The notes under the pieces are model-generated. The model searched no databases. It saw only the letters and a program-made list of their open reading frames with translations, and had not been told where the DNA came from. 64,000 nt of DNA from Microbacterium sp. CGR2 (GTDB lineage Bacteria; Actinomycetota; Actinomycetes; Actinomycetales; Microbacteriaceae): assembly GCF_003626735.1 (NCBI RefSeq), contig NZ_RBHX01000001.1, forward strand, positions 1,178,001-1,242,000, given 5' to 3'. Shown here in pieces: positions 14,704 through 20,182 of this stretch. The position numbers and the translations under genes were made by a program. Within the stretch, counting starts at the first letter, position 1. The number at the start of each line of letters is the position of its first letter.

Positions 14704-16416
14704 ATGACCGAAGACCACGAATTCAGCTTCCTTGATGATTCCCGCGGCGACTTGGATCGTGCGTTGGATGACCTGGTCGGTAGAGCGCGGACGGTGTTGG
14801 CCACGCAGGGCCGACTGCGTTCGCTGCTGAAGGCCAACCAGGCCGTCGTCGAGCACTTGGAGCTCCCGGTCGTGCTGAGGCGGATCGTGGAGGCGGCTGT
14901 CGAACTGGTCGGCGCCCGGTACGGCGCACTCGGAGTCGTCGCGGCGGACGGCACGCTCGAACAGCTGGTCCATGTCGGGATGACGGACGACGAGATGACG
15001 GCGATCGGCCGGCTTCCGAGTGGTCACGGTCTGCTCGGCGCGCTGATCGATGACCCCCGACCGATCCGGCTCGACAATCGATCCGAGGATCCTCGGTCCG
15101 TCGGCCTCCCGGCCGGCCATCCGCCCATGGACAGCTTCCTCGGCGTGCCGATCCGGGTGCGCGATGAGGTCTTCGGCAATCTCTATCTCAGCAATCATCC
15201 GGGAGGGAGTTTCACCGAGGAGGACGAACAACTCGTGACCGCACTCGCGGCCACAGCGGGCGTCGCCATCGAGAACGCCCGGTTGTTCGCAGAGATCCGT
15301 CGTCGGCAGGCGTGGAGCTCCGCGTCGGCTGAGATCAACGAGACCTTGGTGTCCAGCGATGAGGCGAACTCCATCTCGACGCTGGCCGCCCGGGTTCTCA
15401 GACTCGCCGAGGCAGACGTGGTCTGGGTCCTGCTTCCGACGGATGACCCGAAGCAGTATCGCGTGGAGACTGCGCGCGGACTCGATCACCTCGCGGTGGA
15501 GGGGAGCCGCATCCGGATTGCGGGGTCCGTCGTGGCGCGCGTCTTGGAAGACCATCACCCGCGCCTGATCGATGACGGTTCGACGCACGAGGTCGGATTG
15601 AGCACGGGCGACGCGATCGGGCCTGCCATGGCGGTTCCGCTCATGGCAGGGGGCCATCCTCAGGGCATCTTGTATGTGGCTCGCACAACCGGTCGTGCTC
15701 GTTTCGCGGCGTCCGATCTCGAGATGGCGGCAGACTTCGCCGGTCAGGCGAGTCTCGCGGTGGAGCTGACGGCAGCCCGAGTCGATCGCCAACGCATGGT
15801 GCTGCTCGAGGAACGAGGACGCATCGCGCGGGATCTGCACGATCACGTCATCCAGCAGCTGTTCGCAACGGGTCTCGACCTTCAGAACGTGGCTGAATCG
15901 ATTGCGCCGTCATCCGTCTCGGACCACATCACCCACTCGGTGAGCAATCTGGATGCCGCCATCTCACAGATCCGGACCGTCATCTACGCCCTCACGCCTC
16001 CGGACCACGACCGGCACGATACGATCCGCAACAGGATCATCGAGCTCGCCGGCAAACTGTCGCCGGGGCTCGCGCGCACCCCGTCGGTCACATTCTTCGG
16101 CCCCGTAGACCTCGTCATCACGGCGGACCTCGCGGACGATGTGATCGCTGTGGCCCGTGAGGCCCTGTCGAACGTCATCAAACACGCCGACGCGCAGAAC
16201 ACCTCCGTCTCGCTGTCTGTCAGCGAGGGCTCCGTCTCTCTGGAGATAAGCGATGACGGATGCGGGTCACGCGGCGTGCTGCGGCGCAGCGGCGTCGCGA
16301 ATCTCGAGCAGCGTGCGCTCCGCCGCGGGGGAGCGTTCACCTTCGATTCAGACGCGACCGGGACGCGTCTGAGATGGAGCGTCCCTTTCGCTCCCGATGA
16401 TTCGCTGGGTGCATGA
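14704..16416 (+). CDS. devS: DevS/DosS-like sensor histidine kinase with two GAF domains
   Basis: 570 residues: a short N-terminus, GAF domain 1 (about 55-200), GAF domain 2 (about 220-365), then a HisKA_3 region (ERGRIARDLHDHVIQQLF, about 375-392, with the phospho-acceptor His) and an HATPase_c domain (EALSNVIKHA, SDDGCGSRG). The first GAF contains AGHPPMDSFLGVPIRVRDE; His139 there aligns, from memory, with the haem-ligating His of mycobacterial DosS. If so it senses O2, NO, CO or redox state. Its stop overlaps the start of the response regulator gene. Confidence 0.9.
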   Translation: MTEDHEFSFLDDSRGDLDRALDDLVGRARTVLATQGRLRSLLKANQAVVEHLELPVVLRRIVEAAVELVGARYGALGVVAADGTLEQLVHVGMTDDEMTAIGRLPSGHGLLGALIDDPRPIRLDNRSEDPRSVGLPAGHPPMDSFLGVPIRVRDEVFGNLYLSNHPGGSFTEEDEQLVTALAATAGVAIENARLFAEIRRRQAWSSASAEINETLVSSDEANSISTLAARVLRLAEADVVWVLLPTDDPKQYRVETARGLDHLAVEGSRIRIAGSVVARVLEDHHPRLIDDGSTHEVGLSTGDAIGPAMAVPLMAGGHPQGILYVARTTGRARFAASDLEMAADFAGQASLAVELTAARVDRQRMVLLEERGRIARDLHDHVIQQLFATGLDLQNVAESIAPSSVSDHITHSVSNLDAAISQIRTVIYALTPPDHDRHDTIRNRIIELAGKLSPGLARTPSVTFFGPVDLVITADLADDVIAVAREALSNVIKHADAQNTSVSLSVSEGSVSLEISDDGCGSRGVLRRSGVANLEQRALRRGGAFTFDSDATGTRLRWSVPFAPDDSLGA

Positions 16417-17102
16417 TGGCGACGATCCGCACCTTCCTGGTCGACGACCACGAACTGGTACGGCGTGGTGTCGCCGGACTGTTGTCGACGCAGGCGGACA
16501 TAGAGGTCGTCGGCGAAGCCAGCACCGCGGCACAAGCCCGTTCCCGCATCCGCGCGACGACTCCTGACGTCGTGATCCTCGACGTCAGGCTGCCGGACGG
16601 GAACGGGATCGACGTGTGTCGCGATGTGCGGTCGACGAACCCGAGCACCAGGTGCATAATCCTCACCGCCTACAACGACGACGAGGCCATCTACGCGGCG
16701 GTCTTGGCCGGCGCATCCGGTTATGTGCTGAAGGACGTCCGCGGTAGCGGGCTCGTGGAGGCGATCCGTGCAGTGGCAGAGGGGCGGTCACTCCTCGACC
16801 CCGCCCTCACCCGGCGGGTGGTCGAACGCCTTCGCTCGCCGCATTCGAGAGATCCTCGGCTCGGCTCACTGGGCAGGCGGGAACAGCAGATCCTGACCTT
16901 GATCGCCGAGGGGATGACCAATCGGGAGATCGGTCATTCTCTCGCCCTCGCCGAGAAGACCGTCAAGAACTACGTATCGTCGCTCCTCAGCAAACTGGGT
17001 CTGCACCGGAGAACGCAGGCAGCCGTGTTCCACCTCGAATCCCGCGAACCTCATCGTGGCGCGAATCCATCGAGAACCGATCCCGTCGTCGACTCGGTGT
17101 AG
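16413..17102 (+). CDS. devR: NarL/DevR-type response regulator
   Basis: 229 residues. Receiver domain 5-120 with the DD pair, phospho-acceptor Asp57 in VVILDVRLPDG and Lys in YVLKDV; a LuxR-type helix-turn-helix at about 145-210 (LGRREQQILTLIAEGMTNREIG, AEKTVKNYVSSLLSKLGLHRR). The ATG overlaps the kinase stop (ATGATG, so two adjacent ATGs are possible starts). The partner of the preceding sensor is certain by context. GGCC-N4-GGCC palindromes elsewhere in the window are candidate targets. Confidence 0.92.
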   Translation: MMATIRTFLVDDHELVRRGVAGLLSTQADIEVVGEASTAAQARSRIRATTPDVVILDVRLPDGNGIDVCRDVRSTNPSTRCIILTAYNDDEAIYAAVLAGASGYVLKDVRGSGLVEAIRAVAEGRSLLDPALTRRVVERLRSPHSRDPRLGSLGRREQQILTLIAEGMTNREIGHSLALAEKTVKNYVSSLLSKLGLHRRTQAAVFHLESREPHRGANPSRTDPVVDSV

Positions 17103-17254: not shown

Positions 17255-17863
17255 ATGCAAAAACCCACTGTTCGTACTCGTCGTCTCGCAACGATGGTCG
17301 TCGGTCCAGCGGCGATCCTGCTCGCAGGCCTGATGGTCTGGCAGGGATCCAACGCCGCGTTCACCGCGACCACCCGCAACACGGGAAGCAACTGGCAGAC
17401 CGGGTCGGTGATCCTCTCCGATGACGATCTCGGCGCGGCAGCCTTCCGCATCGACGGAGTGGTGCCCGGCCAGACCGGCTCGAGATGTCTTGTCGTGACC
17501 TCGCAGTCCACGGTTCCCGGGCAGGTTCGCACCTACGTGCAGAACCTCGGAGCCCAGGGTCTCGAGGACTACATCACGATCAAGCTGGAGCGCGGGACCG
17601 GCGGCAGCTTCGCTGACTGCACGGGCTTCGTGGCCACCAGCAGCCTCCCGGGGCCGCCTGTGCCCCTCTCCGCCGTCAGCGTCGCTATGAGCGGCTACGC
17701 CTCTGGTGTACTGCCCTGGAACACCACCGGAGTCTCCGGCGAGTCCACGGTCTATCGCGCGACGTGGACCTTCGACGTCACCGGATTGACCCAGGCGCAG
17801 GTCGACGCGCTGCAGGGAAAGTCGGTCAGCGTCGACGTCGTCTGGGAACTGCAGTCCTCCTAG
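17255..17863 (+). CDS. SipW-dependent exported protein (TasA/camelysin-like)
   Basis: 202 residues; ATG at 17255 after GGAGGGGG. Basic N-terminus, a hydrophobic helix (about 11-31), then NAAFTATTRNTGSNWQTGSV, the typical cleavage region of SipW-type signal peptides followed by the first strand of a beta-sandwich. The mature part (about 168 residues) has two cysteines and no cell-wall sorting signal. It lies 27 bases upstream of the signal peptidase-repeat fusion gene, whose internal export signal has an almost identical AAFTATT-x-N-xx-SNW stretch. It is probably a secreted surface or matrix protein processed by that peptidase. Confidence 0.8.
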   Translation: MQKPTVRTRRLATMVVGPAAILLAGLMVWQGSNAAFTATTRNTGSNWQTGSVILSDDDLGAAAFRIDGVVPGQTGSRCLVVTSQSTVPGQVRTYVQNLGAQGLEDYITIKLERGTGGSFADCTGFVATSSLPGPPVPLSAVSVAMSGYASGVLPWNTTGVSGESTVYRATWTFDVTGLTQAQVDALQGKSVSVDVVWELQSS

Positions 17864-17890
17864 GCGCTTCGGCGACGCGGAGGCTGACTG

Positions 17891-20182
17891 ATGACGGGGC
17901 AACTTGTGGAGGAGGAGTCCCCGACCCGACGCGCAGTCGCTTCGGGCTGGGGGCTCTTGCTCGCGCGCCTACTCGCGCACGGGTACCTGCTGTTCCTCGT
18001 CGCGCTCCTCTGCTGCGCCGCGCTTCCGATGGCGTTCGGCCTCACCGGAAACGTCGTGCAGAGCGGGTCCATGGCGCCGCACATCCGCGTCGGCGACGTC
18101 GTGCTCTCCCGCCCGCTGCCCGCAGAGGCGCCGACGCCCATGGGCTTGGTGGTGACGTTCCCCGCGGCCCCAGGGTCGGCGACACCGGGCGAACGGTTGC
18201 ACCGCGTCGTGGGCACCAACCCAGACGACTCTCTGATCACGGCCGGCGACGCCAACCGGGATATGGACAGCGCTCCGCTTGATCGCGCCGACATCATCTC
18301 GGTCGCCAGCCTGCTCATCCCCTGGATCGGCCTTCCTGCTTTCTGGTTGCAGCACGACCTCATCCTTCCGTTCGCCGGGTGGGTCGCTGTCACCCTGCTG
18401 GCCCTGATCGTCGAGTTCGTCTCCACACGCGATCAGAAGAAGGAACGTTCGAGACGCGAGCCCGAGCGCGCCCGGCCACCGCGGCGCCGCCTGCCCGCCC
18501 GGGTCGGCGCCCGGCATGCGTTGCCGGTCGTCGCGCTCGTTCTCTGTGGGGCACTCGCCGTCACCGCCCCGAACGCCCCCTCCGCGAGTGCGGCGTTCAC
18601 GGCTACGACCGTGAACGTGTCGAGCAACTGGGTCGCCGCGGTAGTGCTGACTCCCGCCGAACTCGCGTTCGCCGACAGTCCGTCGAACGCGACCGGCGGC
18701 ACGGCCTTCGCCACCCAGCCCGCCGTGGAGATCCACACCGCGAGCGGTGCCGACACGACGAGCACCGCGCCGGTGTCACTGTCGATCACCACGCCTGCGG
18801 GTGCCGCCCTCACCTGTGGTGCCAACCCCATGGCGGCTGTTGCCGGAACGGCCCAATTCGCCGGCTGCAAGATCGACAAGGCCGGCACGTATACGTTGAC
18901 CGCAACCTCGCCAGGCCTGTCCAGCGCGACGAGCACGAGCTTCACCGTCTCCGTCGGCCCTGCCGCCAGACTCGTCTTCACAGCGAGCCCCGGCAACACG
19001 GCCCGCAACACCGCTTTCAGCAGACAGCCGGTGGTCGCCGTGCAGGACGCGGGTGGCAACACGGTCACAAGCAGCAGCATCCCGGTCACGCTGTCGGTCA
19101 ACAGCGGCACACTGATCTGCACGAGCAACCCGAGGAATGCGGTCGCGGGTGTGGCGACGTTCGCCGGATGCCGGATCGACCAGGCCGGGAACAAGGTGCT
19201 CACGGCACGGTCGGGAAGCCTGACCGGAACGAGCGCCGGTTTCTCCATCTACTCGGTGGCCAGCAGACTCGCATTCCTCACCTCGCCGTCGTCGTCCGTC
19301 AGCCGCACAGCCTTCGCCAGTCAACCTGTCGTCGCCATCCAGGATTCGGCCGGTCTCACCACCGGCGGGACAAGCGCCATCACCCTCGTGATCACGACAC
19401 CAGCGGGTGCCACGCTCGCCTGCAGTGCAAACCCGGTCGCCGCCGTCAACGGCACCGCGACGTTCACCGGATGCGCCATCGGCAGAGCCGGCACCTACAC
19501 GCTGACCGCGACCGCCAGTGGTCTCAGCTCAGCGACGAGTATCAGCTTCACCATCCGCGCAGGCCCGGCCACGCGCCTCGGCTTCACCTCCTCCCCGTCG
19601 AGCTCGACCAGTTCAGTCGCTTTCTCCACGCAGCCCGTCGTGGCCGTACTCGACGCCTTCGGCAACACCACCACCAGCACGGCCGCCGTCACGCTCGCCG
19701 TCACGACTCCGGCTGGGACGAGCATGATCTGCACGAGCAACCCGAAAGCGGCTGTCGCCGGGGTCGCTGCTTTCGCCGGATGCCGTATCGCTCGAGCTGG
19801 CACCTACACGCTGACGGCAAGCGCAAACGGGCTGACCTCCGCCACCAGCGGCAGCTTCACCATCTTTGCCGGTGCCGCCGCGAAAGTCGTCGTCACGACC
19901 TCGCCCGCGAGCGCGGTTCGCGGTGTGTCCTTCTCGACCCAGCCCGCTGTCGCCATCCAAGACGTCGCAGGCAACCTCATCTCGACCACGGCACTGGTCA
20001 CTCTCACGATCACAGCTCCGACCGGGGGAGCAACGCTGAGCTGCTTCTCCAACCCCATCGCCACCTTCGGCGGAACCTGGACCTTCAGCGGATGCCGGAT
20101 CGACCGCGCCGGAACCTACACCCTGACGGCGGCGTCATCCGGATTGTCCTCAGGGCAGGGTACGAGCTTCGTCGTCGGGTGA
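17891..20182 (+). CDS. sipW: SipW-type signal peptidase fused to an exported five-repeat Ig-like protein
   Basis: 763 residues. Residues 1-180 are a SipW/ER-type signal peptidase: membrane helix (about 22-47), VQSGSMAPHIRVGDVV with catalytic Ser60, RLHRVVG with His104 (the Ser-His pair; no Lys), the ITAGDAN box with Asp120, and C-terminal hydrophobic segments (about 136-177). After a basic linker (180-209) comes a second export signal (about 210-234) ending SASAAFTATT, nearly the same as that of the preceding gene product. Residues 254-763 are five repeats of 101-104 residues, each with QPxVxVxD, a Cys pair spaced exactly 17 (309/326, 410/427, 511/528, 614/631, 718/735) and AGTYTLTA. The reading frame is continuous, so the fusion looks real. 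Confidence 0.88.
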   Translation: MTGQLVEEESPTRRAVASGWGLLLARLLAHGYLLFLVALLCCAALPMAFGLTGNVVQSGSMAPHIRVGDVVLSRPLPAEAPTPMGLVVTFPAAPGSATPGERLHRVVGTNPDDSLITAGDANRDMDSAPLDRADIISVASLLIPWIGLPAFWLQHDLILPFAGWVAVTLLALIVEFVSTRDQKKERSRREPERARPPRRRLPARVGARHALPVVALVLCGALAVTAPNAPSASAAFTATTVNVSSNWVAAVVLTPAELAFADSPSNATGGTAFATQPAVEIHTASGADTTSTAPVSLSITTPAGAALTCGANPMAAVAGTAQFAGCKIDKAGTYTLTATSPGLSSATSTSFTVSVGPAARLVFTASPGNTARNTAFSRQPVVAVQDAGGNTVTSSSIPVTLSVNSGTLICTSNPRNAVAGVATFAGCRIDQAGNKVLTARSGSLTGTSAGFSIYSVASRLAFLTSPSSSVSRTAFASQPVVAIQDSAGLTTGGTSAITLVITTPAGATLACSANPVAAVNGTATFTGCAIGRAGTYTLTATASGLSSATSISFTIRAGPATRLGFTSSPSSSTSSVAFSTQPVVAVLDAFGNTTTSTAAVTLAVTTPAGTSMICTSNPKAAVAGVAAFAGCRIARAGTYTLTASANGLTSATSGSFTIFAGAAAKVVVTTSPASAVRGVSFSTQPAVAIQDVAGNLISTTALVTLTITAPTGGATLSCFSNPIATFGGTWTFSGCRIDRAGTYTLTAASSGLSSGQGTSFVVG

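What the first reader, a model, noticed from the sequence alone, without database searches (positions are those of the whole stretch)
17255..20182. A SipW-type signal peptidase translationally fused to its own exported repeat protein
Seen: one uninterrupted 763-codon frame encodes a signal peptidase with an intact Ser-His pair (Ser60, His104), then a second signal sequence ending SASAAFTATT, then five Ig-like repeats. The internal signal nearly copies the one of the small exported protein encoded just upstream (AAFTATTRNTGSNW against AAFTATTVNVSSNW). Each repeat has two Cys exactly 17 residues apart. Known: SipW-type peptidases process TasA/camelysin-like proteins encoded next to them, normally as separate chains. 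Inference: the protease may cut its own C-terminal half free, a self-releasing surface or matrix protein made 1:1 with its protease.
Basis: partly seen in the sequence, partly recalled or inferred. Interest (0 to 1): 0.75.

Follow-up and report, generated by a model that had tools for sequence, protein, structure and literature searches.

The report
Signal peptidase fused to fibre partner
A Microbacterium-type bacterium carries a two-gene unit in which an enzyme that trims exported fibre proteins is joined in one chain to an exported partner bearing the same kind of trimming site, a design that relatives share with different partners swapped in.

Summary
One intact 763-codon frame (17891-20182) joins an ER/SipW-type signal peptidase (Ser60, His104) to a second signal peptide with a TasA-type Ala|Ala-Phe site and five repeats. 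It is no fluke: I assembled 51 fused loci (50 from Actinomycetota, the window's included), and two closed plasmids carry more. The exported half varies: Ig-type repeats, Big_7, ice-binding, laminin-G, short domains, or only 17-20 residues. The gene just upstream encodes a small protein whose predicted fold has the cryo-EM TasA fibre as best PDB match, with a disordered N-terminus where TasA has its donor strand. The window's fused cargo starts with nearly the same peptide. A search with the TasA-like profile found 18 of 197 genomes, all 18 with such a peptidase nearby, fused in 9. Elsewhere the same cargo is a separate gene after an unfused peptidase (52% identity over 613 residues). Best reading: a TasA-like fibre system whose SipW-type peptidase is welded to a TapA-like nucleator or tip protein. 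Cleavage (cis or trans), strand donation and fibre formation are inferred, not shown. Nine searches of the held library showed no description of it.

The parts
17255..17863 (+). small exported protein, read as TasA-like fibre subunit (202 aa)
   Evidence: translation; AF2 of the mature part pLDDT 87.7; Foldseek best hit TasA fibre 8aur_A E 7.1e-5
17357..17395 (+). mature N-terminus AFTATTRNTGSNW of the small protein, candidate donor strand
   Evidence: residues 1-13 of the mature part below pLDDT 50; position of TasA's donor strand from PMC9674648
17891..20182 (+). fusion gene, 763 codons
   Evidence: whole fusion kept in orthologues
17891..18415 (+). ER/SipW-type signal peptidase with two membrane helices (residues 1-175)
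   Evidence: TIGR02228 5.7e-9, below cut-off; family profile to SEC11C 5.1e-14; fold SEC11A 3.8e-4
18068..18070 (+). codon of Ser60, putative nucleophile
   Evidence: invariant in 46 relatives
18200..18202 (+). codon of His104, putative base
   Evidence: invariant in 46 relatives
18416..18514 (+). basic linker between second and third membrane helix (residues 176-208)
   Evidence: net charge +9 over residues 176-209; fast evolving
18515..18592 (+). internal signal peptide (residues 209-234), ends in SASA
   Evidence: model helix 210-225; sequence; cleavage inferred, SignalP not run
18593..18631 (+). cargo N-terminus AFTATTVNVSSNW, candidate donor strand
   Evidence: likeness to own partner exceeds the 493 other windows of the cargo; kept without the two anchor residues
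18647..20179 (+). cargo with five repeats, each with a Cys pair 17 residues apart
   Evidence: Pfam CarboxypepD_reg and fn3_3

Best explanation
The two genes form an actinobacterial TasA-like fibre system. Gene 1 makes the fibre subunit. Gene 2 makes an ER/SipW-type signal peptidase; after its second membrane helix a basic linker on the cytoplasmic side leads into a third helix, a signal peptide that exports the repeat domain. The peptidase trims the TasA-type site (Ala|Ala-Phe) of gene 1's product and the same kind of site in its own chain or in a neighbouring copy. The freed cargo then begins with a strand that copies the subunit's donor strand, so it can complement the first subunit as TapA is thought to do for TasA. 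It thereby starts the fibre and puts a repeat, lectin-like or ice-binding-like domain at one end. Shown here by computation: the fusion, its conservation, the constant neighbour, the neighbour's fold match, split homologues. Inferred: cleavage, cis or trans, strand donation, fibre formation, and TapA-like role.
For: Intact and selected fusion, also on two closed Arthrobacter plasmids. Catalytic residues invariant in 46 relatives. TasA-like protein above 25 bits upstream in 50 of 51 fused loci; of the 14 not used to build the profile, 13. Its predicted fold has the TasA fibre as best PDB match and only hit below 0.001, with N-terminal residues 1-13 disordered. From the TasA-like profile: 18 of 197 genomes, peptidase nearby in 18 of 18, fused in 9. 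Split form: in L159 a separate secreted protein after an unfused peptidase is 51.6% identical over 613 residues to the exported half of fusion L016. P2' is F or W in 47 of 51; a hydrophobic residue at +12 or +13 in 50 of 51 against 47.5% elsewhere in the cargos, aromatic in 32 of 51 against 13.7%. Published: SipW cleaves TasA and TapA, and TapA's N-terminus resembles the TasA donor strand (PMC9674648, passages); TapA residues 44-57 alone support biofilm formation (PMC10151520, passages), which would fit the cargos of only 17-20 residues (L007, L046, L049).
Against: No experiment. Cleavage sites were set by eye around the AF motif, so the P2' count is biased. Without the two anchor residues the cargo N-terminus is the best window against its own partner in only 20 of 41 loci, down from 32 of 41; in several short-domain cargos the likeness is poor. 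Own-partner pairing beats 5000 shuffles (904 against mean 743, SD 37), but relatedness alone could do that. By sequence the small protein's TasA link is weak: PF12389 matches 12 of 37 relatives but not the window's own, NF046066 one of 37 at 0.031, no TasA by profile in PDB. The model does not place the cleavage site. The cargos share no fold with each other, and no TapA-named family matched.
Confidence: 0.55

Rival explanations
1. The third helix is not cut. The fusion stays in the membrane as a surface protein that couples the peptidase to a fibre anchor, so subunits are trimmed where the fibre begins.
For: The model gives a third helix at 210-225. Four of 51 internal sites have Leu, not an aromatic, at P2'.
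Against: The TasA-type AAF site is kept in the window's orthologues. In the split form L159 the cargo carries an N-terminal signal of its own ending in the same motif.
Confidence: 0.2
2. The likeness after the cleavage site is only an extended recognition motif for the peptidase. The cargo is an unrelated surface or matrix protein with no part in the fibre; the fusion just ensures its processing.
For: PMC10269814 reports that residues P3 to P4' around the TasA site matter for LepB inhibition (passages). Cargo folds differ widely, and the likeness beyond the anchor is weak in about half of the cargos.
Against: A hydrophobic residue recurs at +12 or +13 in 50 of 51, far from the bond. Some cargos are only 17-20 residues long, leaving little but that peptide.
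Confidence: 0.2
3. Chance read-through or assembly error joining two neighbouring genes.
For: Other lineages have the parts as separate neighbours.
Against: The fusion recurs in many species and on closed plasmids, with both halves under purifying selection.
Confidence: 0.02

Closest known systems
Bacillus subtilis tapA-sipW-tasA operon
   Same: A TasA-fold exported protein, a SipW-type peptidase and a second SipW substrate whose N-terminus resembles the TasA donor strand, encoded together (PMC9674648 and PMC10151520, passages; own results)
   Different: Three separate chains in Bacillus. Here the peptidase and the second substrate are one chain, the subunit gene comes first, and the second substrate has no detectable sequence kinship to TapA.
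ER/archaeal-type signal peptidase I (TIGR02228, SEC11)
   Same: Ser-His active site, sequence profile and fold
   Different: Carries a third membrane segment, a second signal and an exported domain. The window's score is below the TIGR02228 cut-off.
Bacillus cereus sipW-tasA/calY/capP system
   Same: SipW processes filament proteins and a modulator, CapP (PMC13082335, passages)
   Different: Separate chains. CapP was not compared by sequence.
Streptococcus pyogenes SipA
   Same: A signal-peptidase fold serving assembly of a surface fibre (fold hit 4n31; title and abstract start in a listing)
   Different: It serves sortase-built pili. That it is a separate chain and not a working peptidase is recalled.

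Membership tests
ER/SipW-type signal peptidase I | Ser-His catalytic pair | tested here: met
   Ser60 and His104 invariant in 46 relatives
ER/SipW-type signal peptidase I | TIGR02228 score at or above the curated cut-off | tested here: not met
   36.0 bits against 51.85 for the window. All 46 relatives match at E 0.01 or better, best 6e-22
ER/SipW-type signal peptidase I | SEC11-like fold | tested here: met
   Foldseek best hit SEC11A, E 3.8e-4
SipW of Bacillus (NF046067 equivalog) | score above the cut-off | tested here: not met
   25.5 bits against 190, so SipW-type, not SipW itself
TasA/camelysin (small protein) | PF12389 match | tested here: inconclusive
   12 of 37 relatives, best 7.4e-5, not the window's own protein
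TasA/camelysin (small protein) | TasA fold with free N-terminal strand | tested here: met
   8aur_A best hit, E 7.1e-5, TMq 0.62; residues 1-13 disordered. A predicted model, not a solved structure
TasA/camelysin (small protein) | polymerises by donor-strand exchange | not testable with these tools
   needs protein work
TapA (fused cargo) | N-terminus resembling the subunit's donor strand | tested here: inconclusive
   Clear for the window. Across cargos the best window in 32 of 41 with and 20 of 41 without the two anchor residues
TapA (fused cargo) | sequence kinship to TapA | not tested
   No TapA sequence was compared. No TapA-named family appeared, and whether those libraries hold one was not checked
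TapA (fused cargo) | processed by the SipW-type peptidase and starts fibres | not testable with these tools
   needs protein work

The most novel reading that the evidence does not exclude
A self-processing fibre starter: one chain carries the protease, the substrate site and the first donor strand. Each cut of its own chain yields one nucleator at the spot where the protease sits, and the membrane-bound protease half then trims incoming subunits like a minimal assembly platform. Exchanging the exported domain behind a fixed enzyme and strand gives each species a fibre end with a different grip: repeats, lectin-like, ice-binding-like, or the bare peptide.
Probability: 0.33. Interest if true: 0.85.

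Novelty: new variant of a known kind. Interest (0 to 1): 0.7.

Why it matters
TapA is reported not to be conserved even within Bacillus (PMC10151520, passage), so what starts TasA-like fibres elsewhere is largely open. If the reading holds, the fusion itself points to the starter in many Actinomycetota, where likeness to TapA would not. It also supplies a natural, covalently paired enzyme and substrate for asking whether a signal peptidase can cut its own chain. In the two closed plasmid records looked at, the annotation does not name the peptidase half or the small partner.

Tried and rejected
Chance frame or assembly error: rejected. Separate internal translation start: in the 75 codons before AAFTA the window has one in-frame start codon (TTG, 23 codons before), L014 three and L095 one; no position is shared by all three. 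The sequence profile of the small protein found no TasA in PDB; the fold search did. The fusion model gave no usable placement of the cleavage site, and its coordinates could not be read. LPXTG-like peptidase fusions (L013, L113, L114, L119) lie in a distant peptidase group with no TasA-like match in the stretches held, so I set them apart. The first finder of upstream partners took wrong positions in many loci and was replaced (45 of 51). The profile used later found 50 of 51 above 25 bits; L028 (27.0) and L030 (36.3) are weak or partial, L065 (10.4) is not convincing.

Rows left out: near-copies were dropped from the 51-locus set and from the tree (lists in the scripts), not exhaustively, since some close relatives remain. 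Searches used 44 of 51 loci for pairing (L005 and the six without a partner left out), and 41 of these for the window test (cargo of 100 aa or more). The fold alignment A3 holds 37 proteins (the window's and 36 of the other 44). A4 holds 46 fusions. Cargo classes were set by hand and include the truncated-looking L030 and L047. Pfam was run on the window's fusion and on ten further proteins, nine from the actinobacterial fused set plus LPXTG-type L113.

Full report
What is there. Frame 17891-20182 on the + strand is open for 763 codons. It follows, after 27 bases, a 202-residue exported protein at 17255-17863. The N-terminal part of the long protein is a signal peptidase: TIGR02228 E 5.7e-9, below its cut-off, and Bacillus SipW E 8.3e-6, far below its cut-off. 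The family profile's best PDB match is human SEC11C at 5.1e-14, and the model's best Foldseek hit is SEC11A at 3.8e-4. Ser60, His104, Asp120 and Asp126 are invariant in the 46 aligned relatives. The model has helices at 12-48, 158-189 and 210-225. The linker between the second and third carries net charge +9, so by the positive-inside rule (general knowledge) the third helix should export what follows. After it comes Ala234|Ala235-Phe236 and then five repeats with Cys pairs 17 apart.

It is real and selected. Orthologues at 76-79% identity over the peptidase end keep the whole fusion: L014, a named Microbacterium MAG, 772 codons, and two unnamed same-genus genomes, 771 and 772. The 772-codon one, G155, looks identical to L014 in the stretch printed and may be the same genome. 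Against L014 and L095, dN/dS is 0.22 and 0.18 in the peptidase and 0.25 and 0.21 in the repeats; linker, signal and N-terminal stretches have too few codons for firm values, and the linker against L095 gives 1.3. Two circular Arthrobacter plasmid records carry the same gene pair. Their annotation calls the first gene a hypothetical protein and the second an Ig-like domain-containing protein; I read the peptidase, the second signal and the small partner in both.

It is a widespread design with exchangeable cargo. One scan of named genomes returned 80 loci, a capped list. Same-genus and same-order searches gave matches in 10 of 58 and 42 of 149 genomes; these are peptidase matches, not all fused. 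I assembled 51 fused loci, the window's copy included, after leaving out some near-copies; 50 are actinobacterial and one, L065, is a Kaiserbacteria contig. What follows the second signal differs. By Pfam: ice-binding PF11999 in L009 and L023, Big_7 in L016, Laminin_G_3 in L035, L045, L053 and L064. Twelve of the 51 are short cargos of 112-118 residues that I class together; the one tested, L057, matched no cargo family. Three are only 17-20 residues (L007, L046, L049). On a quick tree of 127 peptidase domains nearly all fused forms lie in one large group with some unfused ones. The cargo label needs at least 17 changes and fused/unfused at least 6 (many forks weakly supported, classes set by hand).

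The neighbour looks like a TasA-type fibre subunit. A profile of the small proteins matches upstream of the peptidase above 25 bits in 50 of 51 fused loci. Thirty-seven of these built the profile, so they match by construction; of the other 14, 13 pass, two of them weakly (L028 27.0, L030 36.3), and L065 does not. AlphaFold2 with 37 relatives gives pLDDT 87.7 with residues 1-13 disordered. The best PDB match is the cryo-EM TasA fibre (8aur_A, E 7.1e-5, probability 1.00, TMq 0.62), the only hit below 0.001. Archaeal bundling pili come second; Fim and Pap pilins, the CanA cannula and an archaeal filament are among the next hits, mixed with unrelated beta-sandwich proteins. By sequence the link is weak: PF12389 matches 12 of 37, not the window's own protein; NF046066 TasA matches one of 37 at 0.031; a profile search of PDB found no TasA.

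A census from the fibre side. Searching 197 genomes of the class, the own genome included, with the TasA-like profile gave 18 genomes. In all 18 the fetched stretch, about 1.5 kb on either side, holds such a peptidase. It is fused to a second signal and cargo in 9 genomes (the own included) and unfused in 9; one fused genome, G260, also has an unfused locus. The profile was built from proteins beside fused peptidases, so the fused share may be inflated, and the tool scores a limited number of candidates per genome.

The split form shows what the fusion joined. I fetched wider stretches for eight of the nine unfused genomes and the second locus of G260 and compared candidate neighbours from seven of these nine loci with eight fused proteins. 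Four matched. In L159 the gene after the unfused peptidase encodes a secreted protein 51.6% identical over 613 residues (E 2.7e-178) to the exported half of the L016 fusion, with its own signal ending in the same motif. L162 matches L016 at 42.9% over 611. L158 and L160 match laminin-G-type cargos at 32-35%. Candidates of L155, L156 and L157 did not match; L153 and L154 were not tested, and G282 was not fetched.

How it most likely works. Published work: SipW cleaves TasA and TapA; [quoted passage not shown] TapA's N-terminus resembles it and may give the first strand (PMC9674648, passages). TapA is an Ig-fold protein with a disulfide, and secreting its residues 44-57 alone supports biofilm formation (PMC10151520, passages). 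E. coli LepB cuts sites with an aromatic P2' inefficiently, none of 143 verified LepB substrates has one, other residues from P3 to P4' matter too, and SipW processes TasA, which has Phe there (PMC10269814, passages and introduction). In the fused set P2' is F or W in 47 of 51 and Leu in 4. A hydrophobic residue stands at +12 or +13 in 50 of 51 against 47.5% of position pairs elsewhere in the cargos, an aromatic one in 32 of 51 against 13.7% (sites set by eye, species not independent). The window's cargo starts AFTATTVNVSSNW and its partner AFTATTRNTGSNW. I therefore read the fused cargo as a TapA-like starter or tip that donates its first strand to the subunit, and the 17-20 residue tails as strand-only versions.

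What tells against it. Cargo N-termini are the best window of their cargo against their own partner in 32 of 41 loci, but in 20 of 41 once the two anchor residues are dropped. Own-partner pairing beats 5000 shuffles (904 against a mean of 743, SD 37), but relatedness alone could give this. The model leaves residues 233-258 below pLDDT 50, so whether the site reaches the chain's own active site is open. One strong TIGR02228 match was found in the own genome and a second at E 0.011, so this enzyme is the likely cutter, but cis and trans are not separated.

In print. Nine searches of the held open-access library listed no paper whose title or abstract start describes a bacterial signal peptidase fused to its exported substrate. 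I saw listings, and passages of four papers (PMC10269814, PMC9674648, PMC10151520, PMC13082335). Most subscription journals are missing from that library, so this is not proof of absence.

Noticed in passing
14704-17102: A histidine kinase-like (14704-16416) and a NarL-like response regulator frame (16413-17102; names from reading the translations) lie directly upstream. Of 58 loci compared both are kept in L014 (84 and 86% identity); weaker relatives lie near L032 and, regulator only, L031.
   Followed up: partly
L013, L113, L114, L119: A second kind of fusion in same-genus genomes: a more distant ER-type peptidase followed by a third helix and a protein with a C-terminal LPxTG-like end, with no TasA-like match in the stretch held.
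   Followed up: partly
L065:3233-4297: A Kaiserbacteria contig has a peptidase followed in frame by a signal ending GTLSYFRDTETSTGNMFTAGTW, TasA-like in look, far outside Actinomycetota.
   Followed up: no
L056:3692-7595; L161; L156: L056 has two peptidase fusions in tandem; L161 has a TasA-like gene on either side of the fusion; L156 has three TasA-like frames.
   Followed up: no
L030:3878-4495; L047:3749-4687: These two fusions end 18-23 residues after the site where relatives run on, so they look truncated or frameshifted.
   Followed up: no
L168:7647-8366: On the Arthrobacter sp. TMP15 plasmid a separate ice-binding family protein gene starts about 1.2 kb after the fusion.
   Followed up: no
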